A DNA stretch of 64,000 nucleotides from Bugula neritina (taxonomy: Eukaryota; Bryozoa; Gymnolaemata; Cheilostomatida; Bugulidae). Position 1 is the first letter of the stretch. Every line of letters begins with the position of its first letter. The notes beneath the pieces were generated by a model. The model was given only the letters and a program-made list of their open reading frames with translations. It was not told where the DNA came from and did no database searches. The stretch is taken from NCBI GenBank assembly GCA_964035545.1, contig CAXIUT010000272.1, positions 1 through 64,000 on the forward strand, read 5' to 3'. The position numbers were made by a program, and so were the translations under genes. Shown in pieces: positions 10,550 to 42,835 of the stretch.

Positions 10550-12269
10550 ATGATAGCCAATTTACTACAATCCAACACTCATAAACTAGTCCCCGAAGAA
10601 GCTGTCAAATCAACAGCTAGCAGTATCTTCCATTCAGCCCCCTCCAACTCAAATAAACTGCCTCCAACGCCAAATAGTGGGAAATTATCTTTTAGGTAGC
10701 ACAACTCTAAATCAGGTAAAAATATTGGACAAGGAACATTTGGTAAAGTCCACCTGGCTATGCATATACAAGTAGCGAGAAGGTGGCTATCAAGGTAATC
10801 GATAAAAAGAGTATGCGCCCCAAGGACATTGCCAGAGTTAAAAGTGAGATCAGTATACTGAGCTAGGTCAGACATAGGAACATTCTCCACCTGTATTAGA
10901 TAATATAAACTGAAAAGAGTTTGCTCCTCATTACTGAATTTTTATAGCGAGGAGAATTGTTCCGCCAAATAATAAAAGAAAAAAAGTAACTTATTTCATA
11001 TTTAGAATCAATTAACAACAAGCCTGTCTCTACTTCCAACAAATCATAGCCGGAGTCTAATATCTACACAACAACAAAATATCCCACAGAGATCTAAAAC
11101 CTTAAAATATTCTCATAGATCATGATCAACAACTCAAAATATCGATTTTGGTTTAAGCACCCATTATCATAAAGGAAAATAATTGAAATCATTTTGTGGA
11201 TCACCTTGCTATGCAGCTCCTTAAATCATTGAAGGAAAAGCTGGATATAATCCTGTTCAATGCGATCTCTGGAGTTGTGGAGTCATCTTATTTACCATGA
11301 TTTGTGGACATCTACCTTTCTGTGATTCTGATACTAACACTCTCTACAAAAAAGTCCTAGCTTGTAGCTATAAATACCTTCTTTTGTCAGTGGAGCTGCC
11401 AGAAATCTTATATAAAATTTATTAGTTAAAAATCCAACCAAAAGAATATCATAGCCTAACTTAAAACTCATTAATGGTTCAATCAAGGGACTACTCCTAC
11501 TTCTTATGGGATAAATGCTGGATAAAAGTTGAGAGTAGATTATGACCTTATATAAAGATGAAATAGTTTAAAATATCTACAGAAAAATTGATATAAAGTT
11601 TATCAAGTGGATAGATGAACAAAGATACAGCTTCTTACTTTATAGTTATGAAAAAAATGGCAAAAATAAAGAAAAAATATCATCATATATAGGCTCTGAC
11701 AGTTTTGATTCTTCTTACATTTAAAAATCAAATGAAAAGGGCATTGACAATGAAACTTAGTTCCAAGTGATCCTATAACTATTATCTAATCAACAAGTGG
11801 ACCTGAAATGATGGATACAGAATAAAAACTTGACTCAGGAATGGCAGTTGACAGCATTAGATGGACTTCAACTGGAATCTTAGAGCAATAAAAAAGTCTT
11901 AGTCAAGAAGAACTAACAAAAACTCTTTAGGGAATTCTTGGACTTATTGAAATAAAGAAGAAGGCGAAAAGATACCAAAAATAAAAGAACTATTTATTCA
12001 ATAAAATAAAAATAAAAACAAAAGAACAATATCAGATAAGAAGGAAAGTTAATTTTATTCAAATAACAAAAATAATGTAAAAGGAGTAGATAATCTACAA
12101 ATGTATAAAAAATTACTTTTACAAGTAATATAAATAAAATTAGAATCATATAAAACAATTTAACCAGCTCAAACCTAACAAACAAATCATTTTAATAAAC
12201 TTACATCAGAATCTTCAAAAAAGAATAAAGTAAAATCGGTTCTTCCTCATTTATAAAATAACAAAATGA
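10550..12269 (+). CDS. Serine/threonine kinase, CAMK/SNF1-like, with frame breaks
   Basis: Kinase subdomains are clear. They are GNYLLGKNIGQGTFGKV (joined across a 20-nt intron at 10696-10715), VAIKVIDKKS, the helix-C Glu, SHRDLKPQN, ISDFGLS, a CGSPCYAAPQII activation segment, DLWSCGVILF and NPTKRIS. A second 20-nt intron at 10986-11005 joins KEKK to QACLYFQQI. The activation segment and APE-equivalent place it in the CAMK/AMPK-SNF1 group. Besides the introns, single bases seem to be missing at about 10765, 11138, 11373, 11467 and 11553, each inside conserved text. A low-complexity C-terminal tail continues to about 12269. The N-terminus upstream of the ATP loop is unresolved. It may be a pseudogene or sit in poorly corrected sequence. 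Confidence 0.72.
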
Positions 12270-12580
12270 GATCTTCTTCTGTTTATTAAAAAACTTTACT
12301 AAGAACTCCAAGTATAAAACCAGGTAAATCTCAAGTAGCAGGCATGGATAAATTAATAAAATCAGTAGATAAGAAAGAAGTGAAGAAGATTTTACCATAT
12401 TTGAACTATCCTCAAAAAACAAAACTAAGATAAAAAATGTCTAAAATGATTTCAAAACCTTCAGAAATCATCTTAAAAAATTAAACAAAAGAATGAAATC
12501 TATTTTCTTGATATCTATCAAATATTTTATCAATAACAACTACTATATATTATCTAATAACTTTTATAATATGATGCAGA

Positions 12581-13793
12581 TCAATACTTTTGTCCTTCTG
12601 CCTTTATTGATTACTCATAAAGTTTTCCTCTGATAAAATCTTAATAATAAAAAAGTTACGTTTGTTATTGTCAACATAAATATTGGCAGTAAGGTCTGAC
12701 ATTTCTACTTAGGATCAGCCTCAGCTAATTTTATCTCTTCCTTTACATGCTATAATGCTTCATCTTCAATAGTCTTAGTGAATTCAATAAGTACTTATAG
12801 TTCTTATTCGGTGGCTAGTTTGTGTTGAAGAGCGATATCATGAAGCGTAAGGATAGGATCTTTACTTTTCCTATAGTCTTGGACTTCTTCTCTTTTTCTA
12901 TAAGTGCTTCCTGGGTCAGACATCGAATGTCCATGATATCTATAACACATAATCTCAATGAAAAGAGGTCCATTCTCCAAAGACCACTATTTAGCAAATC
13001 TGAATGCCTCTCGCACTTCATAAACATTGTTTCCTTCAAACCTGATACCAGGAATAACATCACCCTTGTATAAAATTCAGTATTCATTGAAGATCGAACC
13101 ACAGATGTTCCCATCCCATATTTATTGTTCTCACAAATGTAAAGAGCAGGAAGTTTCCATAACTTAGCAATATTCGCTGACTCAAACAGTTGTCCTTGGT
13201 TGGCAGCTCCATCTCCAAAAAGGATACTTGCCACATTACTCTTACGCTGGTACATTAGTGCAAAAGCTAGTCCTGTACCAACTGATATCTGTGCCCCTAC
13301 TATACCATTTCCTCCATAGAAGTTGGTGTCTTTTTTATAGTAGTGCATAGATCCTCCTTTTCCTTTGGTAGCTCCATTACGCTTTCCTAACATTTCAGCA
13401 ACAATCTATCTGACAGAATAACCTCTCTTGTATGCTTGACAGTGGATTCTATATGCTCCAATAAGAGGATCTTCGGTATTGAGTACTTCTTCCATGCCTT
13501 AGGGGATAGCTTCCTATCTAGTTATATTGGTACTTGTCCATCGTAGAGATGGCAAAATCCTCTGATTTTTTTTTGCTTGTAAAGAATATCACAGTTTATT
13601 TCCATGTTTCGCATAACACAAAGTTCCCTAAAATTTTTTAGAAGTTGTTATCGAGTGACGGTTGTAGTAAGAGGAACAGAATCTTCTGGCAATTTGTAAA
13701 AAAAAGGTTTTCGCTTGATATTAAAGAAGGTACAAGTTAAATGGTAGCTTCTTTAACGGTTGAGAAAAGCTTGATGCCTTTTTTGACAAACAT
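12581..13793 (-). CDS. PDHA: Pyruvate dehydrogenase E1 component, alpha subunit (~384 aa)
   Basis: Thiamine-diphosphate-dependent E1 alpha: decarboxylates pyruvate and passes acetyl to lipoyl-E2 in mitochondria. In order: a basic presequence-like start [42 protein letters not shown]; the ThDP motif from GDG ([10 protein letters not shown]) to [26 protein letters not shown]; and the phosphorylation loop [16 protein letters not shown]. The C-terminus is [11 protein letters not shown]. Three 20-nt introns (13714-13733, 13514-13533, 12640-12659) are each fixed by conserved residues. Two single-base losses (near 13052 and 12696, both in homopolymers) must be assumed. With them the length is exactly 385 codons, normal for the family. 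A shift-only reading in public-style ORF calls would truncate the enzyme. Confidence 0.93.
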
Positions 13794-13932
13794 CTGCATT
13801 AATAGATTCAAAAAATAATCATCAGAAAATGATAATTAAATAAGAACAAACACGATTATTTAAATTATCTAAAAAAAAGATATGATTTAGGTATTTGGTT
13901 TGATCATTATAACGATTTCAATAAAACAAACA

Positions 13933-15531
13933 ATGCAATGGTAGAAAGTAAAACTTACCTAATAAAGAGCGAATCATCCAATCGCTAGAAACTATCTCTA
14001 AGAAATCTACTCAATCATTAACTCTAGTCACAACAAAAGTCACACATAGTCAACTCAAGACCTAAAACCAGTATCTTATCTTCCATCAAGTGTACACTCA
14101 AAGACAACTTAAAATATTCAACTAAGATAGAGCTAAACTCATGACTGAAAACCGCATGAGAAGAGGATACAGCAGTCAACAAATATCAAGACAGCGATAC
14201 CCTTCAGTATAAAATACAGCAGACGATCGTATTGAGAAACAAAAATTGAAACATGCGATAGGAAAAATCAATTTACTTGCAGATGGAAATGTAGATATCG
14301 AATAAAGTGATCGCATAAGATCGATTTATTTACTGCTTTAGTCACTTTCTAGGTATTTAAGTAGATATTTAGGTACAATAATTGACATAAAGGTATTTAC
14401 TAGTTAATAAAGAACTTAAAATTACTATAAAAAAGCATTCAAATACGTCTACGATTCCTTCAATGAAATAGTTTACATCAATACCATTGATTGGTAAAAA
14501 GAACATCTGTAGTTAATAGCTGGATCAACTAAATGTGAAATGTTGAGTAATACCTCTAATACCTAGTTAAATTGTACAATGGAGTCAAGGATATAACTTA
14601 CAAAGAACTAAGCAATGAACTATTTTATGAATTAGATCGACAACTAAAAAAGAACCAGTAATACAGTCGTTTCAGCTAATCAGCTTATGCATGTATTTTA
14701 TTAAGTTATCAAGAATTATAAAATAAACTTTAATAAAAAAATCATATTATCAAGAAACTCACAGGATCAATCGACTACTATGAAAACCATCCCAGCAAAG
14801 AACAATATGGCTATATCACTGACCTTTAACATAAAACACATTCTTTAGAAAGAGAACTCAGGCAAGCTAATTCTCATATCAAATAACTGGAAAATAGTGA
14901 AGACTATTTAAACCAATATACCAATATGTTGAATTAAAAAGTTTAAGAATTGAAATCAAAACTTTATCAATTTTAGTTAGAACAGTTTTCAAGTCTTAAC
15001 TAAATATAAAAAAACTCAGAACTTAAACAATTCGAATAAAATGTAGCTGTTCTTAAAGATCTTCTTCATAAAGGTTCCATAAGAATGGCCAGTATGCGAG
15101 AAGAATACAATAAACTTGATTCTTATAATAATGAGCTACTAGGATAAAGAAGTGTACTTGCCAAAAGAGCAGCTGTTGGATTTACTGCACTAACACCTAG
15201 ACCCAATTACAGTCAGATATTCAAAGACAATCATCTGAGTTTCTAGGATTTAATTCCTCAAAAAATAAAACCAACTACTGAAGAACTAGTTTCTTCATTG
15301 ATCAAATGCTTTAAAGAATTTTATAATCGTTATGTAGCCAAGGAACCTAGATTAGACGTATAGCAAAAATAAAGTCGTGGACTGGGAAAGGATCCAGGAA
15401 AGCTGATTCTCGGTGAGTTGTAAAAGGCCAGAAAGCAGATGAAGAAGGTGTAAGATATAACAGACAATGTGCATAAAGGATATCAGAAGCAGAAAGATGA
15501 AAAATAGCAGGTAAGGGGCAAAAAGAGATGA
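13933..15531 (+). CDS. Coiled-coil protein, unknown function (~500 aa)
   Basis: A 20-nt intron at 14547-14566 joins two long frames: RIEKQKLKHAIGKINLLADG... and LYNGVKDITYKELSNELFYEL... The second half is dense coiled coil (SLERELRQANSHIKQLENSEDYL, NSELKQFEQNVAVLKDLLHKG). It is followed by a less charged segment PRPNYSQIFKDNHLSFQDLIP and a basic tail to TGA 15531. The N-terminal ~60 codons need one more frame change, so the start (13933, or 13938 in another frame) is unsure. No targeting signal. A structural ciliary or cortical role is possible but not shown. Confidence 0.65.
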
Positions 15532-15589
15532 TACTATTAATTCATGATTTGTTCAAGAATTTATAATAATTAATACAAATATATAACTG

Positions 15590-15829
15590 ATGAGCGAATA
15601 AGTATCAACCGAAATAATCTTCTCTAATAACTAAATATCAGCTATTTAGATCTTTATGGGCAGTTGCAAATTCGTTCTTTCAGAAATAGAAGACAACCAA
15701 CCTCTCAATCACTATATCAGCGCTCTTAAACTCAAAGATTATGCTAAGGAACACCAAAATCTAGCAAATGGATAAAATATCAAAATAAGCGATCATCTCA
15801 CTCTCTTCAAAGTCGATAAACTCAAATGA
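15590..15829 (+). CDS. Small hypothetical protein (79 aa)
   Basis: Complete frame, ATG 15590 to TGA 15829, in the same direction as and 59 bp after the coiled-coil gene. Begins MSEQVSTEIIFSNNQ and contains FMGSCKFVLSEIEDNQPLNHYISALKLKDYA. Composition is normal for proteins here. No family recognised. It is convergent with the next gene. Confidence 0.45.
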
Positions 15830-15888
15830 ATTCTTACTTGTTTTATATCTTTAATTGTAATTATTAATTAGAATAAGTTAATATAAGA

Positions 15889-17931
15889 TCAGAAAAGGTT
15901 AAGGTTGTCCATGAGAAAGTTTCTTATAAATTTATTGCAGTCCAGAACAATTTGAGGCTATCTATTTCCCAACTTTATCTCCAACTACTCCTCAAGTTGA
16001 ATCAAAAAGTCATTGCATTCCAATATAATGTTTCTATTTGCTGAGTGATCTTCTAAAATATTAGTTATTTTTCTTAATAAGAAACGACCTGCTTGTTAGC
16101 TACCTTCTTTAGTCTCCTTTAGAAGCTTTTCTATGTTACTTAGAGATTATTGGTCAGCCAAAGATAATTTCTTACTACTTTGAAGATCATTTTGTTTTGG
16201 CTAAACTTTGTTCAAATGTTCTATTTATGCATCACATATTTTTAATCTTTTAGTGAGATACTATAGTTCATAGGCAAGTTTTTTTCTACTTGCTTCTGAT
16301 TCTTCATATTTTCTCTTCCCCTCTGCAAGTTGTTTCTCGAGGATAGCCATTTTACTTGCTGATACCTTTTGCTATGCTGATTTGTTTTAAAGTCTTTTAA
16401 CTTCTTAGTTAAGTTTACGAATTACTGCCTTATTACTTTTGTCATCAGTTCCTTGACAAAGTGAAGCTATATCATTTCTCAGTTCTTTTATTTTTAATTC
16501 AAGCAGCATTATTTATCTTTCATGGATAGTATACAGTTAATCTAGACCATTTTCATGGGTAAGAATAGTTATTTTCTTATTTAGTTGTTGAATAGTTTGA
16601 TGATATTGAGATATTTCAACTGCATGATTTGCCTTCAAAATAGTTATCTCCTAACTTTCTTTTAAATGTTATCCTCTTTTAGGAAGGGTTTAATCAAACT
16701 GTTTTGTTTCAATATTTTGTCCTCTATGCCTGTCTGTTCTGTGATGAGTGACAGGTGAAGGACTTGTATTATTATTTTCATTGAATTAAGATGGTTCTTC
16801 ATAGTTATTGATCTTACTACTGAAGAGCTAATCATCTTCAGCTTCGTTGATACTGTATTTATGAGTTTTTCTTTAGAATGATCGACAATAATTGAGTTAA
16901 TTTTAATCTGACATCAATCTAGATATAGGAGTTCTATCAGTTTTAGCCTGTTTAACTGACCTACTTTTTTGTACTTCTTTTCTTGATAAAACATTAAAAT
17001 TAAATTGAGAAGGAAGGTCTTTAATATTAGGTTTATAACTATTTTCTATCTTCAAAAATACTGATAAATCTTTTATTTTATCAAAAAAAGATAGTCTTTA
17101 TATCATAAGATTAGAACTACCTTCATTGATCCAATTAAAAGCAATAGTAAATGATTGCTAGAGAAGAAGTGAAGCTACTATATTTGTAATAGGTAATCTT
17201 TTAGTAAGTAGTTTGCTAAAATGCTGATACTTATTGGATGGATTGAGTTTTAAATAGTTAAAAATTTGAGTTAGTTGTGATTTAGCCATTCCTAAATATT
17301 AACTATGCTTATTTCCTTGATTAAAAAATTGTTAAGGCAATACAATGAGGTTAAGTTAATTATTCGAGGGATAATTGTCAATTATTTTTCTTATTTTGAT
17401 TATATTTATAGCTGAATTGCTTTTTTATCTCATAATTTTATCAAGAAAGACTTGACTATTTTAAGATTTAACAGGATAAAAAGTCAGTTGCTTTTCAATA
17501 TCTCTCTAGTTAATTTTAAGATCACTAATAACATCAGTAATTTGATTCTATCCAAATTGCAGCACAGAGTAAACTGCATCTCCTATTATTCTGTTTACTT
17601 CTGATATTAACTGAGTGAATCTAATCTGTTACTTAGGAAGTCCAAAAATTATACTACCATTAAATCCTCTTTAAAATAAATCTGAAAGCAACCTAAGCTG
17701 TCCAGGATTGATATTTTGATTTATTTAGTGATAACCGTATTTTTTATCACTTCCTTTTTGTGTAAAAAATTGTTATCCATGTGAGTTCTTAAATCTTTTA
17801 ACCTGTTAAACATCATGTTAGTGGATAGCTACAAGGCGTAAAGGTTCTAAGACAACTTTAGCCTCGCCTAGGTTGTTGAGTTCACTCACTAATTGACTGA
17901 TCGAACGGTTGCGGTATTCTATTTCGGACAT
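15889..17931 (-). CDS. Large coiled-coil protein (680 aa)
   Basis: One frame of 681 codons from ATG 17931 (MSEIEYRNRSISQLVSEL) to TGA 15889 with no intron or break. Residues 1 to ~330 look globular, with mixed hydrophobic patches such as GFNGSIIFGLPKQQIRFTQL. A Ser/Asn-rich linker follows, and from about residue 400 to 640 there is long coiled coil (ITILKANHAVEISQYHQTI, MAILEKQLAEGKRKYEES). The last residues (LVLDCNKFIRNFLMDN-like) may cap the rod. Function unknown. Such globular head plus rod proteins are common in centriole and transition-zone structures. Confidence 0.78.
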
Positions 17932-18056: not shown

Positions 18057-18950
18057 TCAGTTATTTGTCTGATTTGGGTTATCATAAGGAATATTTCTGA
18101 CCATTTCAGCTGGCATATCAACTCTAAAATTGGGAGATTCTTGATTAAATAAATTTCTTTCAACTTTTACTTCTTGATAAGGTTCATTTCCCATATTTAC
18201 TGGAGCAGGATATTCATCATAACGTTAATTTCCATATCTTCTATCAACTTCTGTTGAATAAGGATCTTTTTAAATTTCTAATGACTTCGGTGGAAGCATA
18301 TGTTGAATTTTACTATCATTACGTTCTCTTTCCATGTCTCTTGTTTTTTAAGCACTAGGACTATCATTTTATTATGCTTATGATTCAACATTATCCCTGT
18401 GAAAGTTAGAAGCAATAACTAGATAGAGTGAACAAGGCCATCCTAAGATAAAAGTTATGATAGTATCAGCCAATGCATATCTGAACATATTAATAGTTTT
18501 TGTTTCTAAGTAAGATAGATGTACAAAAATCATGAATAGAAAGACCAAGAGACGAAGCATATCTAGAGGCTCCAGTATAGACTATAGCTGTTAATACTGC
18601 ACTTGCAAAAGTAAATCCAACTACAAGACAAGATACAGCCCAAGAGGCAAAAGCTATTGAAGTACTGCTACGATTTCTGACCAAATTATAAGCAATCAAG
18701 ATAGTTGAACCCATGATAAAAAGACCACTGATAATAGTAAAAGCAGCAGTTGATTTAACTCCTACTTCACTTGCAAAGATCGAAGCAAGGGTAATTGATT
18801 AGTAGGGACTACCTGTATCAGAATAAGTGGCTCCAACTTGATAGAGGCTGATTTACATGCGAGATGAAGTAGTCCATTAATCACAGTGAAAACCAAAGTA
18901 AAAACTTGGATATTCCAACTACTTGCAATACTACGGATCTGAGTTTACAT
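18057..18950 (-). CDS. Four-pass membrane protein with polar tail
   Basis: Begins MQTQIRSIASSWNIQVFTLVF. Hydrophobic segments follow: VFTLVFTVINGLLHL, STAAFTIISGLFIMGSTILIAY, SWAVSCLVVGFTFASAVLTAIVY and ADTIITFILGWPCSLYLVIAS. After these comes a hydrophilic C-terminal tail of ~90 residues ending NPNQTNN at TGA 18057. A 19-nt GT...AG intron about 18499-18517 joins HDF to TKTINMFRYALAD. One base seems missing near 18860. The arrangement (short N-terminus, long first loop, three close helices) resembles the claudin/SUR7/EMP superfamily, but no signature was found. A possible paralogue lies just upstream at 19022-19711. Confidence 0.6.
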
Positions 18951-19957: not shown

Positions 19958-21092
19958 ATGCAATAGGAAATGTCTTCTCCTTCTCTTGGAGATTTTTCAT
20001 TATTAAGTTTGCTTGGTTTTGGTAACTACGCTAAGGTGATTCTAGTGCGTCGCAAAGCGAATGGAAGAGTTTATGCAATAAAGATCATTAAAAAGGAGAA
20101 AGAATCAAACCTTAAAGGGATAAAAAAATAACATGCCTTCATAGAAAGATAACTTTTAGTACTGATGAATCTATTTAGAACGAATGCATACATCCTTTCA
20201 TTGTTAAACTATATAGCACTTTTCAAAAAAATAGGAAATTATACTATGTACTATAATATTGTCCAGGAGGATAGCTATTTGGTCTGATACGTAGACTCAA
20301 ACGTTTTAGCGAATAGTCGTACTTTTCATCTTATTTTAGAACAAAATTTTATGCAGCACAAATAATCATCGCTATAGACTATCTACATTCTAAAGGATAT
20401 ATCTACCGCGAGTATTTCATATCCCACTTAGTCTGAAACCTTAAAATGTGCTTATAGATCAAAAAGGATATATCAAACTTGTAGACTTTGGACTCAGCTG
20501 TAAAATCAAACATGCAGCTAAAACAAGTCCAATAGCTGGAACTCCAGAATATATGCCTCCAGAAATATTCGAAAAAGGAGTGCTAATCAATACTGCAGTC
20601 GACTGGTGGGCTCTAGGCAATATCATCTTCGAAATGGTTGCAGGATTTCCTCCCTTCTTTGTACAATATTAATCCATATAAACAATCAAAAATAAGATTT
20701 GCCTTGATTAGCCTCCTCTCCATCTTATAAGTAATCCTCTACTTAAAGATCTTTTGCAAAAACTGTTGGTAAAAGATCCTAATAAAAGATTAGGAAGTAA
20801 AGGATGTTAAGAAATTCACAATCATGATTGGTTTTACGGTACTAATTGGTAGGGTCTTTTGAATCAGAGTATTGTTGCTCCTTTTAAGCCAGAAATAAAG
20901 AATGAGATGGATACAAGGTGGTTTTAGCCTTAACAAAAAGATATGAGTCCTCCTGAGTCAAGTCAGAGTGATAGATCTAGTAACGATAGATATTTTTCTT
21001 TTGATCTTTCTTGGAAGAATAGCAAGGATAACTAAGCTTACTAACAAGGAGCAGCTTCTCCTCCATAAATTGTCATCAATATTTAAAAATGA
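19958..21092 (+). CDS. AGC-family protein kinase (357 aa)
   Basis: Three introns, 20159-20178 (20 nt), 20319-20339 (21 nt) and 20412-20431 (20 nt), give one 358-codon frame. The kinase core shows LLGFGNYAKVILVRRK (Gly loop), VYAIKIIKKEK (Lys), [59 protein letters not shown] and AGTPEYMPPEI. It ends with AVDWWALGNIIFEM and the AGC-type end DPNKRLGSKG...HDWF. The tail has APFKPEI, as in PKA/PKG/S6K-type C-lobes, but no clear terminal hydrophobic motif. All catalytic residues are present. Two in-frame ATGs (19958, 19970) are possible starts. Each intron removal recreates a textbook motif, so the model is firm. Confidence 0.92.
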
Positions 21093-21614: not shown

Positions 21615-23016
21615 ATGGAAGAAGAATCACATGATCTATTCAACCAATTGAACTACTCTCAGGTCTATGATCAAGAGGAAAGCAACATAGCTAGCATCTC
21701 TAGAAATTACTACTCGAAAAACTAAAATCTCATCGAAGAACTCAATAGCTTAGATCACGCCAAGTAAAAATTTAAAGCTTTTGTTGAAGAACTAGGACTT
21801 CATAAACGCACTCCCATTCGAGAGGACATCCTTATGTACTGTGGAGATCAAAAAAAGTCATAGAAATTGATAGAAAATAATCCCAAAGCAGAAGCCATCA
21901 TGAAAAAACTAGAGATCAGAATAGATAAGTAAAGAATTTTTTATTTAGAATGCTAAAAACAAGAAGAATAAAACGTAATTGGGGACAATAAGACCTAAAA
22001 ATATTGATCTGGATCATTTCAAAATATTGTGACTGGAAAGGCTACTAAGACCTTGAAAGAGATATCGTATTAATTCATCTATTTAGACTTAAGAAGATTG
22101 GCAGACAGTTGCCTCTTACATTCCTGGAGTAACAGCTCAAGGTTGTATGTTTAGGTGGTTAAGTATAAAAAAAATTACTCTTAGTTCATATAAATGGCTT
22201 TCTTCAGAATCATAACTTTTAGAAAAAATAGTAGTTGAAAGATTAGGTACAAATATCAATGATCATGGAACAATTAAAGACTGGAAGAGCATTTCCCAAT
22301 AGCTATATAAATTGAATTAAGACTAAAATAAAGTGTATAGAAACGCCAAACAATGTAAAGAACACTGGAATTGTCACCTAAATCCATAACTTAAAAAAGG
22401 TCTTTGGCAACCAGAATAAGATATCAAGTTACTTAGATTTATCAGAGACAACAAAGGACTCAAGAAATGGTCATAGTTGGTCAGACATTTTGATGGAAGA
22501 ACCGAAAATGCTCTAAAGAATAGACACAAACTGTTAATTCAAAAACTACAAAAACCCGCCAAGAACAAACATAAAAATGAACTTCAATTAATATCAGACT
22601 ATCTATAGAAGTTAGTAGTGGATCAATTGACTTCTACTATCAGAGGAGACTAAGACCTTATTTTTGAATAAAATTCTTCAATGAAAGAATAGATGGATTG
22701 TATGCTCCCAAAAGTCAAAAAAGAAGACAATAGCTATGAAACATATGACGGAGGAATCACTCCTACTAGAATTTAAAAAGTTAGTCTTTCTAACTTCAGA
22801 AATATGGACTTTCAATTTCTAAAGTCCATTCAGCCTGGAATTATCTAATCGAATGGAACTTTTAAGAAAATTAACTAGAGTCAGAAAGATCTTCCTTTTT
22901 AAAATGAGCCAGAAGCTGTAGAAGGTAAAGATGAAACCAGTATGTCAGTTAAGAAAAGTAGTGGTCCATTCACATTGACTCCTTTAATAAACTATAGATC
23001 TTTTGACATGCATTGA
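21615..23016 (+). CDS. MYB-repeat protein, SNAPc4/CDC5-like type (453 aa)
   Basis: Two 20-nt introns (21929-21948, 22067-22086) give an exact 454-codon frame. MYB/SANT repeats follow each other: RNWGQQDLKILIWIISKYCDW, then EDWQTVASYIPGVTAQGCMFRW, then DWKSISQQLYKLN...NAKQCKEHWNCHLNP. Next are GLWQPEQDIKLLRFIRDNKGLKKWSQLVRHFDGRTENALKNRH. The last two repeats carry the regular Trp spacing and the R-x-x-x-x-K-N-R recognition helix, so DNA binding is expected. The N-terminal 100 residues are acidic/polar and the C-terminal 150 are disordered. Could be a transcription factor, including a snRNA-promoter SNAPc-like subunit; the subgroup is inference. Confidence 0.88.
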
Positions 23017-23760: not shown

Positions 23761-24656
23761 TCATTTCTGTCTTTTGCCGTTATCCCATCGCCCTTCCTTC
23801 CAAGTCCCATCTCTTCCCTTATACTTTCCTTAGCCGTGCTGAACTCCATTTTCCCACTCTCCTTCATATTATCTTCCATCTGGCCACCACACTCTTCCAA
23901 ACCCATGCTTTTTATCGTCATAATAATCTCCTTCATAAACTCGTCCATCAGGCCATTTAAAAATACCCTTCCCATGCATCTTATTATCCTTCCAATGTCC
24001 TTCATATTCCTTACCGTCCATCCACAAAATCTTACCAAATCCCTCCATCATGTTATCTTCAAAGGTGCCTTCATAAATAGAACCATCAGGCCAAGTAAAC
24101 TTACCCTTGCCTTGCTTTGAACCTTATTTATGTTATCTACTTTAAAATAAGTTTACCCTTAGTAAGAAGAATTGTCAGTCCATTTCTAAATTCCAAAACC
24201 ATGCTGAATATCTTAATTCCATTCACCAGTATAACTAGATCCATCACTTTTAGTATAAACTCCCTTTCCATGGGCTTTATCGTCCTTCCACTCACCTTCA
24301 TACACGTCGCCATTTGCATGAATAAGCCTACCTCGACCATTCGCCCTATCATCAACCCAATAACCTTCATAAAGAGAAAAGTCATCCCAAACCTGTTTTC
24401 CTCTACCGTTACGCATACCATTGCTGAACTGACCTATATACCTTACTCCATTGTCCATTTAGACAGGACCCTATGAGATGAAGTTTTGTCTTTAGAGATC
24501 ATCGAATTTAAAAGGACCTAATTTAGATGCAATTTATTTCGTTCTTTCGCTATAAAAATCTTAAGGTTTAAGGTTGTAGTCCATAGAACTATCAATTACT
24601 AGAGTGTTTTTAGCTTAAGTTTAGACTGAATTACAAGCCTAACACTGTGTTCCCAT
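23761..24656 (-). CDS. MORN-repeat protein with lipidation-type N-terminus (291 aa)
   Basis: One 20-nt intron at 24137-24156 is removed and the frame is then 292 codons. The start MGTQCQACNS carries Gly2 for myristate and Cys5/Cys8 for palmitate. From about residue 80 onwards there are nine or more MORN units of 23 residues: [112 protein letters not shown]. The intron falls inside a unit, and its removal restores exactly 23 residues between successive tyrosines. Likely a cortical or axonemal membrane scaffold. Confidence 0.9.
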
Positions 24657-30450: not shown

Positions 30451-30863
30451 ATGTAGTCAGAATATTTAATATTAATTGTGAATGTGGGCAACAAGGTTGT
30501 TCAAGAGTGCTGCAAGTGTGCGTCCAATGGTTTCACTAACAGCTTCTCCTGCACATTTCATGAGTATTGCCAAACCTGTCTTGAAGTACTTGCTGATAGT
30601 TAGATAGTGATTGCACATTCATGAGGATGCAGAGCTTATCTCTGGTACCCAATATGTTTTTGCACAACGTTCGAGAATTGATGGAGAAGATGAGTGAAGG
30701 CTAAGAAGGATCTTCTTTAGCAGAACTCATGGAACTTAGTTTATTGAACCAAAGTAAGCTTAGTCTAGGTATCATTCTTAACCAGGATGATTTAAATTCA
30801 GAATTGGCAATTAATTTAGGCATAGGAATGGATGTACGTATGACTACAACTCCTGATTGTTGA
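30451..30863 (+). CDS. RING-like zinc-finger protein, one frame change
   Basis: Reads ECCKCASNGFTNSF SCTFHEYCQTCLE, a C-x2-C...C-x2-H-x2-C-x2-C RING-type first half. In another frame it continues MQSLSLVPNMFLHNVRELMEKMSEGQEG to TGA 30863. The change falls between 30590 and 30620. A 14-nt GT...AG segment at 30588-30601 or a single missing base would join the parts. The final Cys pair of the RING is not clear, so zinc binding and E3 activity are uncertain. The PN-x-x-L-x-N-V-x-E text after the finger is typical of RING proteins. Confidence 0.5.
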
Positions 30864-31093: not shown

Positions 31094-31108
31094 AGATAAG
31101 CAACATCA

Positions 31109-35629: not shown

Positions 35630-35696
35630 TAGTTTTATTACTTTCTTCAAAATATGTAAGTTAAAATTAATGATAAGAATGATAAATAACAAGATA

Positions 35697-36487
35697 TCAC
35701 TTCTTCTTTTTGACTGGAGCATTAAAGTTAACTTTTGATACAAAGGTATTTCCTTTCACAAAAAATCTCCAAGGCTTGTCTACCCATTATTCTGCATAAT
35801 CAATGTTGACTCGACGACTCACATCAATATCGAAGTCTTTGATACCAGCATCAACAATACAAAATTAGCCTTTTGATAAATCTATACCATTCATCCTATC
35901 TTTTTAGATTGATAAGCTTTGGCCAACTTTTCCTGGTCCATTACACATATCTTCCAACTTGTTGCTTTTGAGGTTTCTTATGCTTTTCATCAAGTCAATT
36001 CCAACTACTGGCTGAACTGCTCTTATTAGAACAGCTTCTGGTTATCCTTCAAGGCCAGCTACTACATTAAGGCATACATTAGTAGGCATATAAATAGTAT
36101 AAATGTAAAGGTATCCTCCATCAAGCCAAAAATACTTTGTCCTTTCTGTTTTTTTATCTACTTTAATCAAAATATACTATTGTAAGCATGACAGGCTTTA
36201 TCAAGAGGTGCCTTATAAGCTTCTGTTTCTACAATTATTGCCTTCATGATTCCTTTAGGGGTTTCTCTTATGAACATTTTTCCAAGTAGACTTCTGGCGA
36301 GATCAACTACTTCCTGCCTATAATATGAGCGATCCAGATATTTTTCATATTTGATATCTTTTGCACTAAAATTAGTGATTTTGGGTTGAGATAAGAGTTT
36401 GCTTAGTTTATTTTATTTATGATTGGCCTTATCCTCCTACTTTTAATCTTTTTCCAGACTGGCTGGTCTTTCTCTTTTTAATTCCAT
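35697..36487 (-). CDS. MPG: DNA-3-methyladenine glycosylase, AAG/MPG type (256 aa)
   Basis: Base-excision repair enzyme that removes alkylated purines. After a 20-nt intron (36158-36177) the frame is 257 codons. Conserved text: SYYRQEVVDLARSLLGKMF, the catalytic-Glu box IIVETEAYKAPLDKACHAYNN, KTERTKYFWLDGGYLYIYTIYM (family: MF...G.aYVY..YG), VLIRAVQPVVG and MCNGPGKVGQSLSI (family: GPGkL...l.I). The end is RVNIDYAEQWVDKPWRFFVKGN. The catalytic Glu is present; the usual Ser of ASHA is Cys (ACHA). The N-terminal 60 residues are a charged extension. Intron removal precisely restores HAYNNKKT. Confidence 0.93.
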
Positions 36488-36584
36488 CAAAATATCTTAG
36501 GCGGTAAAGAATAATTATATGCAAAGTAGTCAATTATATTAAAAAAAAGAATCAACAATAGTCTTGGAATAATAATTAAATGTA

Positions 36585-38966
36585 TCAAAAGGGTTTACTT
36601 GTAGAATTAAGGACTTTATTACTGGGAGTATAGCATTTATAAGTTTCTTTAACTGTCTCTGTCTTAACTCTCTCTTTCGTAGGACTATTCTTTCCTTCGG
36701 GGTTAACTTTACTTCCTTCTGAGTATTCGTTAACCTTGAACATGATGTTATTGGAATTACTATTTTGAGAACTAACATACACTGTTGGGTTGATGATTTG
36801 CACTGGTGCGTAGAACTTGTAAGGATTGGGAGCTTTATTCGTGGGAGAGGTCTGTTTTGATAGATAACCTCCTTGCATTCGATTCGCATTGTTGTATTAT
36901 GGAACTTTTTGATAAAATTGAGAACTATTTTGCCAGTTCTGTTGAACAAATTTCTTTTAAGGAGAATTTCTTCCTACTTCCTTCAAACTCTTGAAATCTG
37001 ACTATTGTTATTCAGGTTTATTTGAAGTTTGATTCTGTGTAAAATTATGTTGAAAAATAGCTGATTTTTTCTTAATTAATTGTTGGTTTTGGTTATTTTA
37101 TTATTGATTAAATTTAGTATTATCTTTTCTATCTTCAACTGTTGATTTTGCAAAGTTATTTTGAACCTAATTATTTTGAGTTGGCTATTTATTTTTTTTA
37201 AGATTTTTAAGAAAAGCAGGCATTTTGTCAGCTCTAGGACCTGTTGTCTTTTGATAATTAGGATTAGCTCTCATATTTCCTTTTTCTCCAGTTGATGAGT
37301 TTATATTACTGTAGTCTAATCTATTATGTGCAACTTGACTGGTATAAAATTGGTTTGTTTGGTTTGGATGTGTTTTATAATTTTGTGGATTTCTTCTATA
37401 TTGAGGAGTAAAACTAATACTAACTACTTTAGAACTAATACCAATCCGAGCAAGCCTAAGTTATCTACATGAACAGTTAAGTAGACGATTATAAGTATTG
37501 CTATCATTCATTTTATAAGGTTCAGGATAGCTTTAGTAAAAAAGATTATCATTATTTTTACCAAATTCCATGTTCCTAGATGAAACAGCTCCAGGAGTTA
37601 CTGCATAATTATTAGTCATAATCTTCTAAGACCCTTTCCTATGCATCATTGAATTACCCCAACTACCTTCAACTAAATCTTATCCCCTTTGCATACTATT
37701 TAGTTCATCAATAGGACTGTCTATTTCTTGAGGCATTCGCTTTGATTAATTATGATGATGATGTGAAAAACGTGCAGCCAAGTTAAAGTCTTGCTGTCCT
37801 CCTAGAAAAGGAGTTGGAGCTTGGTTTTCTTCTTAGGGTTAGGAAAAAGCTTATTAATCATTGGAATTATCCATTATTAGTTTTTAAAATTCTTTATGGA
37901 TATCTTAACTACCAGAATTTTTCTTTTTTTTACCAAAATGAAATTTATCTGCATTAGTATTAAATGTAGGAGTTTCTAGATCTATTCCTTTTTATTTAGC
38001 AGCAAATCCTACTTCTAATTATTAAACTTCATCTTCTTATTGACTACTATCAAGCATAAAGTTAAGAAGTTTTACATCACTATCTACTATTCCTTTCTTC
38101 TTTTTATTATTTGAGTTATTATTCTTGTCTACTTTCATCAACATTGACTCAATCATATGCATCTGAACTGATTATTTTATCTATGATTGCTGCTTTTAAG
38201 TCTGCTGTTCACTCTAATTTTAAAAATAATCTCCAACTACAACATTGTTTTCAAGAAAAGCAAGAAATGTTCCTTCCTAGTAAAACAAAAAAAGCTACCC
38301 AAAACTACGATAGCTAAGATCGAAGAACTATATTAAATTAACAGTCCATTCTTCAAGACCTCCCATCGACTTATAGTTATTAGCTTCTTCTACTTCCAGC
38401 CTGAAGAGAATATATCTAAATAGAAGCAAAAAAGTTGTATGAAGGATAGGGTTATGATCTAATATCCATTCAGCACATTTCATTCGATTTACGGTCATTC
38501 TTAAAGATTGCTGTTCCATAAACTGAAGGAACCTGGCAGCGAGTGCTTTCATTTGAAGAGTGTCTATTAGAAAGTCGATATTTTTAATGCAAGTGAAGTC
38601 TACATCAGAAGAAAATAGACAACATTTAAGAGTTTCTAGTAAATAATGTCCTGACTAATTTTATGGATCATTATTACCTCGACATTTGTCTCTATAAAAA
38701 ATAGATAACAAGCTATAGAGAAGCATACTAAGGGACGAATTAGGAGAGGTAAGATTTAGAGTTTTTAGGTTATTAGTAAGTTTGACCATTTTTTGAACTG
38801 CTACCCTGATCGAGTTATTTGGTTAAGGAAAATTTAATGTACGATATTAAGTTAGTTCTCTGTACTATTTTTAATCAGGAAGGATAAGAGAAAAGTACTA
38901 CTTTGGCATAACTTTTAATAAGACTCTTTCCATTTCTTTCATTTCCTCGGTCGAAAGGATGTTCAT
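36585..38966 (-). CDS. Asn/Gln-rich protein with folded N-terminus (793 aa)
   Basis: One frame of 794 codons, ATG 38966 to TGA 36585, without introns. Residues 1-300 look globular and helical (MNILSTEEMKEMERVLLKVM; FLIDTLQMKALAARFLQFMEQ; GLEEWTVNLIQFFDLSYRSFG). From ~300 on, the protein is low complexity: long Asn/Gln/Ser/Lys runs, a HHHHN tract, and a C-terminus with PYKFYAPVQIINPTVYVSSQ. Many Gln are TAA/TAG. The composition is prion-like, as in RNA-granule proteins. No domain could be named for the N-terminal part. It shares a short 200-bp divergent spacer with PACRG. Confidence 0.78.
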
Positions 38967-39166
38967 CAAGTGGCTGTAAGTAAAATTATTAATTTAATAG
39001 AATTAAAAAAGGGAATAAGATTATGATATCAGGAAAGAAAACAAAAATAGATGATAGTAATATATAATAGATAAATAATTATCAAAATGGAGCTTATATT
39101 AGTTTATTGAATATTAATAGAGAAATTGTATGGAATGCGATAAAATTAATTGTATAACTTATCTTA

Positions 39167-40154
39167 ATGCTTCCCAAACTCCAACAAAGCTCACTCGCTC
39201 AATCCCTGCGTAGGGACAACTTGGCTTCCCAAATCCAATGTAACTCTCAAAATACTCAGGCGAAGACCAACTTAAAGGTATCATTGCTAAGCAAAACAAC
39301 GAATGCTTCAAACCCTGGAAAAACCACCACGCTCCCAAAAACCCACACTCGCCTTTCGGAGACTTCCCCAAAGAATATATTCCAAAAGAAAAACTCAAAG
39401 ACACTCATCACGAACCCATCCACGAACATACTCTCTCAGGATCACTTGCCAAACATAACAGAAATGCAGGAAACGGAGGAAAAACCTCTAGTACTCTCTA
39501 AAAAAAAAGTGACTACCAAAAACCTGTCCCCAAATCAGGAGCCTTCGAAAAAAGATAAATAGCAGCCTCAGAATTCAGAAGGTATTACGATAGAGGAGAT
39601 ATGCCCTTCAAAGTAGATCACCAAAACTCACAACCAAAACTTCAATGGAAAGTTCAAGTCGAATCTCTCGATTACCATCACTACTTGCCTATATTCTTTG
39701 ATGGTCTCAGATAAAAACTTGACCCATATCGCAGTTTTTCTATTTTGGGTACTAATGATTTGCTTGAGAAGGGAGGCAATAAAATTCTACCAGTAATTCC
39801 TCAGTTGATTATTCCAATCAAAAGTAAATATCAACTAAATCAGCTGCTCTTAATACAAGAGACCCAGATATCATTTCAACTATGTTGAAGGTTATCCAGA
39901 AACTAGTTCTTTCAGGAGAGATGATCGGCTAGGCTTTAGTTCCTTATTACCGACAGATTCTCCCTATCTTCAATATTTTCAGAAACAACAACAAGAATTG
40001 TGGCGATAAGATAGAATATAACCAAAGAAAAAGAATCAACCTTGGCGATCTCATCAGTGAAACTCTTGAACTCTTGGAGCAAACAGGAGGTGAAGATGCC
40101 TTCATCAACATCAAATATATGATTCCCACCTATGAAAGCTGTGTTTTGAACTGA
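39167..40154 (+). CDS. PACRG: PACRG, axonemal inner-junction protein (~322 aa)
   Basis: Parkin co-regulated gene product, a HEAT/ARM-like protein that joins A- and B-tubules of doublet microtubules. Conserved text: [23 protein letters not shown], then [22 protein letters not shown]. Next are [60 protein letters not shown] and [29 protein letters not shown] 20-nt intron (39824-39843) joins PIK to ALNTRD. The N-terminal ~115 residues are a Ser/Thr/Lys-rich extension. They run into the core only if one A is added to the nine-A run at 39500-39508. With that base the length is exactly 323 codons. The stop lies ~120 bp from the telomere. Confidence 0.94.
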
Positions 40155-40274
40155 TGTATGATCAACATGTCTTATCATTATAATTTAACTCAATACTCTA
40201 TCATAAATAATTATCATCAATTATTTTCAACTATAACTATAAATGCCTCCTAAAAGTTTATCTTTCCTTCTAAA

Positions 40275-40328
40275 GGGGTTGGGGTTGGGGTTGGGGGGGT
40301 TGGGGTTGGGGTTGGGGTTGGGGTTGGG
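40275..40328. repeat. Right telomere of chromosome 1, (TTGGGG)n
   Basis: TTGGGG repeats directly after AT-rich sequence, running into the N gap. One unit has seven consecutive G (40293-40299), an irregular repeat or a base-calling artefact. Confidence 0.96.
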
Positions 40329-40528
40329 NNNNNNNNNNNNNNNNNNNNNNNNNNNNNNNNNNNNNNNNNNNNNNNNNNNNNNNNNNNNNNNNNNNNNNNN
40401 NNNNNNNNNNNNNNNNNNNNNNNNNNNNNNNNNNNNNNNNNNNNNNNNNNNNNNNNNNNNNNNNNNNNNNNNNNNNNNNNNNNNNNNNNNNNNNNNNNNN
40501 NNNNNNNNNNNNNNNNNNNNNNNNNNNN
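40329..40528. other. Assembly gap of 200 N between two telomeres
   Basis: Exactly 200 N flanked by TTGGGG on the left and CCCCAA on the right. Two chromosome ends face each other, so this is a scaffolding join through telomere repeats and not a real linkage. Confidence 0.97.
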
Positions 40529-40627
40529 CCCAACCCCAACCCCAACCCCAACCCCAACCCCAACCCCAACCCCAACCCCAACCCCAACCCCAACCCCAAC
40601 CCCAACCCCAACCCCAACCCCAACCCC
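40529..40627. repeat. Left telomere of chromosome 2, (CCCCAA)n
   Basis: Regular CCCCAA repeats following the N gap, ending at 40627. The first gene starts only about 110 bp further on. Confidence 0.97.
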
Positions 40628-40737
40628 TTCAATATAATATTAAATTTAATAATCTTTTGAACTAAAATAAATAAACTATGAGTTAATAAATATTATGATT
40701 TTATTGTTATTTAATTCTCAATCATTTGACTTATTCG

Positions 40738-41139
40738 ATGTATTATTTAACTTATTCTTATCTTTAGTCTTTGGGAGAATAGAAGTATTTATACATTGAT
40801 CCAGAAACCATTATAATTATAAAATATGCTAAAAATTTTCTTGGTTTTTTTGCTATTTTTTTTTTTAATTCTTAGGGAGTCTTCATTTTTATTAATTTCT
40901 TTTTTGATCGCTTATATTAAGGCTTTACTTTTGGAAATTAAGAAGGACTTTATTTATTATTTTAAGTTTTGGAGGAGCTTTACGTTTCTGAATTCGAGTA
41001 TCCATGTTATTTATCATATGAGGCTCTTGATGCTTAGTTTGACAAAATAGAGAATGCTTTTTCAACTCTTACGTCTCTTAAAGGTCCACTTTTTTTTGTT
41101 TATCCTAATTTGTAATAGCCTAATATTATTTCTTAATGA
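40738..41139 (+). CDS. Hypothetical protein (133 aa)
   Basis: With TAA/TAG as Gln: 134 codons from ATG 40738. The text is protein-like: KYLYIDPETIIIIKYAKNFL, GFTFGNQEGLYLLFQVLEEL, YPCYLSYEALDAQFDKIENAF, GPLFFVYPNLQQP. It is Phe-rich in the middle but not clearly membrane-spanning. No family recognised. It would be missed under the standard code, which opens a different, spurious frame at 40826-41050. Confidence 0.6.
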
Positions 41140-41628
41140 GTTGCATTTGGTTTAATGTTAAGTAAAGAATAATAGTCAGACTTTTTGACTGATCTCACAA
41201 AAAAATTAAGCTGATTAGTTATCAGATTGTTTGCATTTACTTTTCTAAGGAAGTGATTAATCATGTTTACCTTTGAGTTTATTATCAAACCTAGAAATAA
41301 AATAATAACTCTTTGTTATATATTTGATTAAAGATACTAACAATAAAAAATAAAGATTAACAATAACTACATTTTTGCAATATTAGAAATGATATTGATC
41401 AATAAATACTAAAGTTAGCTGAATTACAAATGGATAAAAATATTTTGATTCAAAAGAAAGAAATTATATCGACTAATTGATAAAAAATTAATAAGAATTC
41501 ATGATTTTTGTTCTCTAACTTACATTTACTAATCATTCTTTTTATTTAAGAGTTAATATTTTATTCATATTTAATAATTGATATATTTTTGATATATTGA
41601 CTCAAATCAATCAGAAATACGACCTTCG
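41140..41628. other. Convergent AT-rich spacer
   Basis: About 490 bp between convergent 3' ends. Very AT-rich and no gene seen. Confidence 0.5.
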
Positions 41629-42835
41629 TCAGTATTTGATGTGCTTGATAGTCTCCTCTGTAATCTTTACCTTTCTTAAAGTTCCAGAAATCAGCTATTT
41701 CATCTGTTCTCTGCGACTAAGGATAGCGATTGCCTGTTGATCTTGGTCTGAATAAATCTAAATCTCATCAATCAACTCCTTATTTATCAACTAGTACTCA
41801 CTAATTAGGACAAGAAGACGGTCAAGTTATCCATTCAACTTTTTATTGTCATCAAGACCCAAAAAGTGTTCCTTTCTAAGCTTTTACTCATCAGCAATAA
41901 TAATGTCAAGTTGATTTTATTCACTTCTAATCTTTGATTCCATATCAGAAATTCTTCCTGAAAGTTCTTTACCTTTTCCAATTTCATTGTTGAGAGAAGC
42001 TGAGTTGGCTCCAGCTTCTGCTTTATTTTTATCTGCTTGTCCTTTGATATTTTAGAAGGTAATTCTACTCTAGTTTATTTGATTTGTAAGAGATCTTAAC
42101 TTATTTTAGTCTTTTTTAGCTTCTTCGTTCTTCATCTTGAGCTAGGCGATCAATTTTTGATGATCATTTTCAGCTTGTCTAAGTGTTTTATCGAGCTTAG
42201 CATTAACAGACTAACTATTTCTAACAGCTCTTTCGAGATTCTTTAGTTTTTGGACATTTGCATCAAGAAGAGCACTCAATTGATCACATTCTTCTTCAAG
42301 TCTTTTTCTTTAATCTTTGAGTCCTTTTACCTAAATTAAAGATATCTTACAGTGATAGCCAAGTTTTTGTTTTATTCGTTGGTTCTTTGATTTTTATTAT
42401 CAAGTCCTTTGATTTCCAGATTGATTTGTTGAACTTCATTGAGTCGAGCATCATTCATTCTTTTTTTGAGAGTATTCTCTTTGATAAGTTCTTAGATGTG
42501 CATACAGGATTTTTGTAAGTTAACTTTCAGAAGGTCGATTTCTTCTCTTAAATCTAGGATGCTATTCTTGTCAATTTAACTTTTAATTCTAAATGGAAAA
42601 GAAAGTACCTTTGTTCTTTTTAGGCTCTGTCTTTGTCTTGTTGTAGTAGTTCATATTTTTCTCCTAGTTCAAAGATGAGGGCATTGAGTTTTTGATAGTC
42701 AACTTCAATTCTTTTGAGATTGAAAACTTCTGTTTTAAGAGAGTTAATCATGACATCCTTATGGTCACTTTCAACTTGAGCGATCTGATTGGCCCGGATA
42801 GCAGCTTCTGTGTAGTCCAAGTACTTGCTGTACAT
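41629..42835 (-). CDS. Coiled-coil rod protein (388 aa)
   Basis: Two 20-nt introns (42589-42608, 42331-42350) give an exact 389-codon frame from ATG 42835. The whole protein is heptad-rich: SDHKDVMINSLKTEVFNLK, LREEIDLLKVNLQKSC, LKDQRKRLEEECDQLSALL, LERAVRNSQSVNAKLDKTLRQ, SASLNNEIGKGKELSGRISD, LVLISEYQLINKELIDEI. Polymer-forming rods of cilia or basal bodies look like this. No family could be fixed. The intron removals are supported by continuity of the heptads and by frame. Confidence 0.8.

What the first reader, a model, noticed from the sequence alone, without database searches (positions are those of the whole stretch)
10696..42608. Introns are almost uniformly 20 nt long, GTA...AG
At least 16 introns can be placed to the base because their removal restores conserved protein text. 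They lie in PDH E1 alpha (3), CAMK-like kinase (2), AGC kinase (2), MYB (2), TBC, MORN, MPG, PACRG, and two coiled-coil genes (3). Every one is exactly 20 nt and begins GTA; others are 19, 21, 21 and 25 nt. Examples: GTATTTCATATCCCACTTAG at 20412-20431 recreates YRDLKPQN; GTAATAGTAATGAAATATAG at 6172-6191 (minus strand) recreates YVQGMNQ. 20 is 3n+2, so a retained intron always shifts frame. Paramecium is known for 20-34-nt introns under such selection. A spike at a single length would be tighter than that and leaves almost no room for a branch site between donor and acceptor.
Basis: partly seen in the sequence, partly recalled or inferred. Interest (0 to 1): 0.9.

Follow-up and report, generated by a model that had tools for sequence, protein, structure and literature searches.

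The report
Twenty-base introns with fixed branch adenine
A ciliate whose DNA turned up inside another organism's genome assembly interrupts its genes with introns that are mostly exactly 20 bases long and carry one adenine at a fixed spot, which suggests that its splicing machinery measures a set distance.

Summary
The window belongs to small ciliate scaffolds inside a 216-Mb assembly dominated by another genome. On 348,594 bases of ciliate DNA, a gene model with no length preference and no splice motif beyond GT/AG introns of 20 nt, against 1-7 for seven decoy signals. Trained on long reading frames alone it gives 21 against 0-6.

The pattern '20 nt with A15' occurs 102 times on the sense strand of genes and 11 times antisense. 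So there is room for a branch site, at -6, as in Stentor's 15/16-nt introns.

TAA/TAG read as glutamate, not glutamine: the peritrich code.

Public relatives appear to share the PACRG intron, with inferred lengths of 20-28 nt; the window's two nearest resolved relatives have 20 nt with A15.

Verdict: spliceosomal introns of a probable peritrich with a fixed donor-branch-acceptor geometry; a new variant of the heterotrich tiny-intron class. No RNA was available: splicing and branching are inferred.

The parts
6172..6191 (-). 20-nt intron in a TBC-domain gene; A15
   Evidence: (motif run); the motif-free run places a 14-nt intron here
10696..10715 (+). 20-nt intron before the kinase glycine loop (GKNIGQGTFGKV); A15
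   Evidence: located by string; not called by the gene models (frame break nearby)
10986..11005 (+). 20-nt intron in the same kinase; A15
12640..12659 (-). 20-nt intron near the 3' end of PDH E1 alpha; A15
   Evidence: located by string; by-eye reading only, outside the PDB alignment and in no model run
13514..13533 (-). 20-nt intron in PDH E1 alpha; A15
   Evidence: the frameshift model replaced it by a frame break
13714..13733 (-). 20-nt intron in PDH E1 alpha; A15
14071..14090 (+). 20-nt intron in a coiled-coil gene; A15
   Evidence: not in the list
14547..14566 (+). 20-nt intron in the same coiled-coil gene; A15
   Evidence: not; frame
18506..18524 (-). 19-nt intron, A at -6
20159..20178 (+). 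20-nt intron in a PKA-like kinase; A15
   Evidence: not in the motif-free run
20319..20339 (+). 21-nt (3n) intron in the PKA-like kinase; A15 (-7)
   Evidence: 7-residue insert against PKA; DNA
20412..20431 (+). 20-nt intron restoring YRDLKPEN; A15
21929..21948 (+). 20-nt intron in a MYB gene; A15
22067..22086 (+). 20-nt intron in the MYB gene; A15
24137..24156 (-). 20-nt intron in a MORN-repeat gene; A15
   Evidence: motif-free runs stop at an AG three bases earlier (17 nt); the 23-residue repeat period read favours 20
30586..30607 (+). 22-nt candidate intron, weaker
36158..36177 (-). 20-nt intron in 3-methyladenine DNA glycosylase (MPG); A15
   Evidence: motif-free runs give 17 nt; the gapless alignment favours 20
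39824..39843 (+). 20-nt intron in PACRG; A15; position shared with public relatives
   Evidence: not in the motif-free run
42331..42350 (-). 20-nt intron in a coiled-coil gene; A15
42589..42608 (-). 20-nt intron in the same coiled-coil gene; A15

Best explanation
These are spliceosomal GT-AG introns in the macronuclear genes of an oligohymenophorean ciliate that uses the peritrich genetic code. The spliceosome appears to prefer one geometry strongly: donor GTA at 1-3, branch adenosine at position 15 (often T14-A15-T16), AG at 19-20. Length is then fixed as the sum of two near-rigid distances: 14 nt from the donor G to the branch A, and 5 nt from the branch A to the last G. A minor 21-nt class, more often with A at 16 than at 15, suggests that the first distance can stretch by one while A stays at -6. 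Shown: the length spike, the near-invariant A, the sense-strand polarity, frame and homology restoration, and the same intron site in relatives. Inferred: splicing itself, that A15 is the branch nucleotide, and a steric (ruler-like) cause of the fixed length.
For: Motif-free, length-neutral model with frameshift states: 66 of 174 calls are 20 nt, against 1-7 for seven decoy pairs; A15 in 62 of 66; with cheaper frame breaks 53 of 144 with A15 in 50 of 53. Coding model trained on long reading frames only: 21 of 101, A15 in 21 of 21, decoys 0-6. With motif scores: 110 of 159 are 20 nt, A15 in 109 of 110, all 110 different. Length-blind motif scan, sense/antisense: 125/23 at 20 and 24/5 at 21 (threshold 8). 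Scan by length and A position: (20,15) 102/11, (21,16) 24/4. Outside this scaffold: 50 of 124 motif-free calls, A15 in 48 of 50. Seven PDB junctions. Intron GC 15.6% against 31.5% in genes. PACRG relatives: of 17 candidate tails 12 gave a length; A15 is forced by the codons in the three 20-mers and A at -6 in 7 of 12. Code: TAA faces E at 3.77x and Q at 1.93x expectation, TAG 3.95x and 1.84x.
Against: No transcript data. No ciliate snRNA found: U6, U2 and U5 searches of the assembly (46-48 scored candidates each) gave 12 matches, all on large non-ciliate contigs; Rfam found three tRNAs and nothing else in the held ciliate loci. In-frame introns (18, 21, 24 nt) are nearly invisible to the gene model, so the share of 20 (about 80-90% of short introns) is my estimate, not a count. 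The motif (third run) and 61 was learned mainly from 20-mers, and the coding model was trained on genes called with that motif; one search is free of this but finds fewer. Lengths 19, 21 and 22 (5, 4, 6 calls) also exceed the decoys (0-2), so the class is not pure. In one search sense exceeds antisense in most cells, by up to 19 at longer lengths, so (21,16) is only marginal and nothing can be said for 17 or 18 nt. In one search antisense is also raised at 20 (23 against about 12). Part of the 21-nt class, including the one in the window, has A at -7.
Confidence: 0.85

Rival explanations
1. The length is set by translational quality control of the Paramecium type: introns are kept at 3n+2 so that retention shifts the frame and triggers decay; geometry is secondary.
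For: 20 = 3n+2, so retention shifts the frame by arithmetic; 17 nt, also 3n+2, is the next most frequent call in the gene model (8 of 174). Pressure against 3n introns without stops is described in Paramecium (PMC5014332, passages).
Against: 17, 20 and 23 should be equally good, but only 20 spikes; 17 is at decoy level (8 against 1-9). In the strand-controlled scan the next class is 21 (3n) at thresholds 8 to 10 (24/5, 12/1, 6/0) and among the highest at 7 (44/15). The next TGA is a median of 26.5 codons away. The A at -6 is unexplained.
Confidence: 0.09
2. Introner elements: a recent burst copied one 20-nt intron many times, so length is uniform by descent.
For: Uniform length and a shared consensus.
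Against: 110 of 110 sequences differ, and information is 0.1 bit or less at positions 7, 9, 10, 12 and 17. The PACRG intron sits at the same place in relatives with other inferred lengths.
Confidence: 0.03
3. Short internal eliminated sequences (germline DNA) left in the assembly, not introns.
For: The organism is a ciliate, and short eliminated sequences exist in Paramecium (recalled).
Against: Ends are GT and AG with strong orientation to the coding strand (102 against 11). The scaffolds carry C4A2/G4T2 telomere arrays, as macronuclear chromosomes do.
Confidence: 0.02
4. An artefact of the gene model or of assembly indels.
For: Some frame breaks look like 1-nt indels (PDH E1 alpha near 13060), and the model first misread one as a 26-nt intron.
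Against: Real signals give 65, 66 and 21 against decoy maxima of 13, 7 and 6. A15 was not part of the motif-free models. Seven homologue junctions are gapless.
Confidence: 0.01

Closest known systems
Heterotrich tiny introns (Stentor coeruleus 15/16 nt; Blepharisma 15/16 nt)
   Same: One length dominates with a +1 class; GTA...AG; near-invariant A at -6 in Stentor (A10 of 15, A11 of 16; PMC9505925, passages). For Blepharisma I saw only the lengths (PMC9942806, passages).
   Different: 20/21 nt instead of 15/16, so donor to A is 14 nt instead of 9; a different ciliate class and genetic code.
Paramecium ultra-short introns
   Same: Oligohymenophorean, ultra-short GT-AG introns; frame effect on retention.
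   Different: Paramecium is broader: mode 25 in P. tetraurelia (PMC5014332, passages); median 24 with the middle half 23-26 in P. bursaria (PMC12862383, passages). Here a single-length spike, a fixed A, and TAA/TAG = Glu.
Loxodes magnus introns
   Same: Very short (mean 19.3, mode 17; PMC11441545, passages).
   Different: A broader, unusual distribution (93% up to 25 nt), not one length.
Nyctotherus ovalis introns
   Same: Tiny introns (21-29 nt; PMC2633312, passages).
   Different: The authors found no branch-point motif, and the spread is wider.
Nucleomorph introns
   Same: Mostly 18-20 bp, with splicing dropping at 21-27 bp (as stated in PMC5014332, passages).
   Different: Remnant algal nuclei; branch points of the Bigelowiella nucleomorph are called highly divergent (PMC10946202, one section read).
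Euplotes and Oxytricha introns
   Same: A relatively conserved A near the 3' end (PMC10946202, one section read).
   Different: Spirotrichs; Oxytricha median intron length given there is 72 bp.

Membership tests
Spliceosomal (U2-type) introns | GT-AG ends on the coding strand, removal restores protein | tested here: met
Spliceosomal (U2-type) introns | branch adenosine upstream of the acceptor | tested here: inconclusive
   A15 in 62 of 66, 21 of 21 and 109 of 110 calls; branching itself not tested
Spliceosomal (U2-type) introns | snRNAs of the organism | tested here: inconclusive
   matches for U6, U2, U5 only on large non-ciliate contigs; none in held ciliate loci
Spliceosomal (U2-type) introns | removal from RNA | not testable with these tools
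   no transcript reads available
Heterotrich-type tiny introns | one dominant length with a +1 class | tested here: met
   20 then 21 in the strand-controlled scans; the gene model cannot see in-frame 21-mers well
Heterotrich-type tiny introns | A fixed at -6 | tested here: met
   20-nt class; the 21-nt class is mixed
Heterotrich-type tiny introns | length 15 or 16 nt | tested here: not met
   no 15- or 16-nt spike (16 nt is high in the plain count)
Paramecium-type ultra-short introns | broad distribution (20-34 nt as the finding states) with mode near 25 | tested here: not met
Peritrichia | TAA and TAG = glutamate | tested here: met
   assignment of this code to Peritrichia from PMC10553269 (passages)
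Peritrichia | small-subunit rRNA or multigene phylogeny | tested here: inconclusive
   18S search did not complete; one-gene PACRG tree of 32 chosen rows places the window in a supported 14-row group near Paramecium and Tetrahymena, with no named peritrich in it
Introner elements | near-identical copies | tested here: not met
   110 of 110 distinct
Internal eliminated sequences | no coding-strand polarity, TA ends (recalled) | tested here: not met

The most novel reading that the evidence does not exclude
Peritrich ciliates, or one lineage of them, have independently evolved a length-quantised spliceosome. It works as a molecular ruler that accepts almost only an A 14 nt from the donor and 5 nt from the acceptor. 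The A-to-acceptor step (-6) is the same as in Stentor, while the donor-to-A step differs by exactly 5 nt. Relatives whose inferred PACRG intron is 21-26 nt show the length drifting while A often, though not always, stays at -6.
Probability: 0.5. Interest if true: 0.72.

Novelty: new variant of a known kind. Interest (0 to 1): 0.62.

Why it matters
Length-fixed tiny introns with a fixed A are, in what I could read, best described for the heterotrich Stentor. A second ciliate class with the same -6 spacing and a different, equally fixed, donor-to-branch distance would turn one oddity into a comparison that can test which part of the spliceosome sets each distance. It also matters in practice: gene finders trained on species with longer introns may miss 20-nt introns. 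A 2025 peritrich genome paper (seven species sequenced) predicted genes with AUGUSTUS trained on Tetrahymena, and the words intron, splic and genetic code do not occur in its main text (PMC12411067, word search and three passages).

Tried and rejected
A plain pattern count by length was weak: 45 against 28 at 20, with 16 nt higher (50 against 30) and 18, 22 and 34 at 42-43. The first gene model had no frameshift states, produced odd long introns and misread a 1-nt frame break in PDH E1 alpha as a 26-nt intron; frameshift states were added. A local score difference per intron was uninformative at high thresholds, because neighbouring alternatives take over: 44 of 67 at 5 or more nats, 6 of 15 at 10 or more, and the single call at 20 or more is 21 nt. 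In the motif-free run only 5 of the 17 window introns come out at exactly 20 nt. Searches for ciliate U6, U2 and U5 RNA found only copies on large non-ciliate contigs. The 18S and Prp8-domain (PF08083) searches did not complete. Considered and rejected: introners, eliminated sequences, and frame selection as the main cause. Literature searches touching peritrich introns. No title listed there and no passage I opened gave lengths of peritrich spliceosomal introns; (Vorticella with spliceosomal introns) found 0 papers; the one peritrich paper with many uses of the word, PMC4754944, describes group I introns of 402-410 nt in Vorticella rDNA (passages). I opened only some of the listed papers, and only open-licence papers are held, so this is not proof that none exists.
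Full report
WHERE THE WINDOW COMES FROM. The window is contig C258:1-64000 of an assembly of 215.8 Mb in 295 contigs. A protein-kinase scan shows two kinds of contig. On the very large ones (C1-C8) kinase matches are mostly free of internal stops. On most of the small ones kinase frames hold many TAA and TAG, and TGA in only 7 of the small-contig rows (one small contig, C194, has none of the three). So ciliate DNA, including this window, sits inside an assembly dominated by another genome, presumably an animal (inferred; the assembly is unnamed). The window begins with a C4A2 telomere array, and the scaffold, read to base 94000 of 94037, ends in G4T2.

GENETIC CODE. In aligned pairs of predicted ciliate proteins, TAA codons face Glu at 3.77 times and Gln at 1.93 times expectation; TAG codons face Glu at 3.95 and Gln at 1.84 times. 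CAA faces Gln at 5.91; GAA faces Glu at 4.89, TAA at 3.83 and TAG at 3.81 times; neither TAA nor TAG is much enriched for Lys (1.17, 1.09) (1164 alignments, both directions counted). Both codons therefore mean glutamate. In a published phylogeny this reassignment arose once, in Peritrichia; another oligohymenophorean, PL0344, has UAA = Lys and UAG = Glu (PMC10553269, passages), which does not fit here.

LENGTH, WITHOUT ASSUMING IT. I trained a gene model (three-periodic Markov coding model on both strands, TGA as the only stop) on the window plus 47 ciliate loci, 348,594 bases in 48 sequences. Introns needed only GT and AG, with equal prior for all lengths. The first version gave 52 introns of 20 nt among 169 in its third round, with A at position 15 in 50 of 52 and GTA in 48 of 52; rerun with the retrained model it gave 65 at 20 nt, against 5-13 for nine decoy signal pairs. 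A version that allows 1-nt frame breaks gave 66 of 174 at 20 nt, against 3, 3, 1, 4, 3, 4 and 7 for seven decoys, with A15 in 62 of 66; with cheaper frame breaks 53 of 144, A15 in 50 of 53. Its coding model had been trained on genes called with the splice motif; trained on long open frames only, it gave 21 of 101, A15 in 21 of 21, decoys 0-6. Lengths 19, 21 and 22 (5, 4 and 6 calls) also exceed the decoys (0-2); 17 (8) does not (1-9). With donor and acceptor scores, but still equal length priors, 110 of 159 are 20 nt. Outside this scaffold alone the motif-free run gives 50 of 124 at 20 nt with A15 in 48 of 50, and the motif run 81 of 116 with A15 in 81 of 81.

LENGTH AND BRANCH SITE TOGETHER. 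On the sense strand of genes, with the antisense strand as control, a length-blind motif score gives 125 against 23 at 20 nt and 24 against 5 at 21 nt, with no comparable excess elsewhere (threshold 8; 13 nt shows a lesser one, 22 against 13; antisense is itself raised at 20). Counting GTA...[TA]AT...AG by length and position of the A, in AT-rich segments: (20,15) 102 against 11 and (21,16) 24 against 4; (21,15) 15 against 7, (18,13) 16 against 5, (17,12) 20 against 10. Sense exceeds antisense in most cells, by up to 19 at longer lengths, so only (20,15) stands far clear; (21,16) is marginal and the last three are not distinguishable. Of the 110 20-mers of the motif run, 109 have A15, with 1.45 bits there against 1.52 for the T of GT; T16 holds 0.71 bits; positions 7, 9, 10, 12 and 17 hold 0.1 bit or less; all 110 sequences differ; GC is 15.6% inside introns against 31.5% in genes. 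That run used the motif, so 62 of 66 and 21 of 21 are the fairer figures. My estimate that 80-90% of short introns are 20 nt combines and is not a count.

THE WINDOW ITSELF. Seventeen 20-nt introns were checked; all have GTA and A15 (15 printed, two by string and by eye). The motif run of the 17; the others come from earlier model versions or from reading the sequence, several next to frame breaks. The motif-free run of the 17 at exactly 20 nt, places three others at 14 or 17 nt in the same frame, and calls one further 20-mer, 8546-8565, that I did not verify. Seven junctions have no gap at the junction against solved homologues. A 21-nt in-frame intron lies at 20319-20339, where the unspliced frame carries seven residues that PKA lacks; its A is at 15, so -7.

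RELATIVES. A PACRG search and a search with its first exon, of which the best 120 hits each are listed, include public proteins, most of them unnamed, that stop or carry an insert just at the window's PACRG intron. Of 17 such tails, codon-level back-translation gives a length for 12: 20 nt in P0106, P0122 (25 also possible) and P0124; 21 in P0087, P0125 and P0139; 22 in P0130 and P0141; 24 in P0081 and P0082; 26 in P0135; 28 in P0136. Five gave none: three too short (P0121, P0123, P0132) and two that fit no length tried (P0133, P0144). The codons force A15 in all three 20-mers and A at -6 in seven of the twelve; they exclude A at -6 in P0081, P0082 and P0130 and leave it open in P0136 and P0141. 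These lengths are inferred from protein text, not read from DNA. A tree of 32 chosen first-exon rows puts the window with P0106, P0122 and P0121 (96/95), inside a 14-row group (100/98) of unnamed public proteins; this lies in a weakly supported group (91/92) with Paramecium, Tetrahymena, Ichthyophthirius and Pseudocohnilembus. The 14-row group is probably peritrich, but no named peritrich is in it, and P0124 (20 nt) is not among the window's nearest.

MECHANISM. The simplest reading is that two spacings are nearly rigid in this spliceosome: 14 nt from the first G to the branch A, and 5 nt from the A to the last G. Frame selection cannot choose 20 over 17 or 23, and does not explain a 21-nt second class. 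Stentor has its A at the 10th position of 15-nt and the 11th of 16-nt introns, that is -6 (PMC9505925, passages), so 20 nt leaves ample room. The branch role of A15 and the ruler are inferences.

WHAT IS KNOWN. Blepharisma: 15 and 16 nt (PMC9942806, passages). Loxodes: mean 19.3, mode 17 (PMC11441545, passages). P. bursaria: median 24 (PMC12862383, passages). Modes of 25, 56 and 48 in Paramecium, Tetrahymena and Ichthyophthirius (PMC5014332, passages). Nyctotherus: 21-29 nt without a detectable branch motif (PMC2633312, passages). A relatively conserved A near the 3' end is reported for two Euplotes species, Oxytricha and Stentor, and not for the other species compared there (PMC10946202, one section). 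I found no description of peritrich spliceosomal introns in the held library (searches; PMC4754944 opened concerns group I introns).

LIMITS. No RNA, no species name, no snRNA of the ciliate. Assembly indels exist, so some 19-, 21- and 22-nt calls may be errors and the true spike may be tighter.

Noticed in passing
window 40275-40624: A G4T2 telomere array, then 200 N, then a C4A2 array: the scaffold seems to join two separate macronuclear chromosomes end to end. Similar N-bridged telomere pairs lie in L032, L035, L038 and L039, so 1-40328 is probably one chromosome.
   Followed up: partly
window 48764-48847; also L015, L021, L023, L033, L039, L042, L043, L047, L050: Interstitial telomere arrays of 54-108 nt without N beside them, outside predicted coding sequence; perhaps alternative telomere addition sites merged by the assembler.
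   Followed up: no
window 12615-13799: The PDH E1 alpha gene shows a 1-nt frame break near 13060, likely an assembly indel.
   Followed up: partly
window 49576-54485 and 55227-58799: Two neighbouring large predicted genes with nearly the same cysteine-rich start and near-identical ends, a likely tandem duplication.
   Followed up: no
G000 contigs C17, C65, C196, C295, C6, C4: COX1 matches of several kinds: one without TGA (C17, bacterium-like), one split within a long frame (C65, perhaps the ciliate mitochondrion), one split with 7 and 2 TGA (C196), a full copy with 9 TGA on C295 and again on C6, and a fragment on C4. The assembly may hold several organisms.
   Followed up: no
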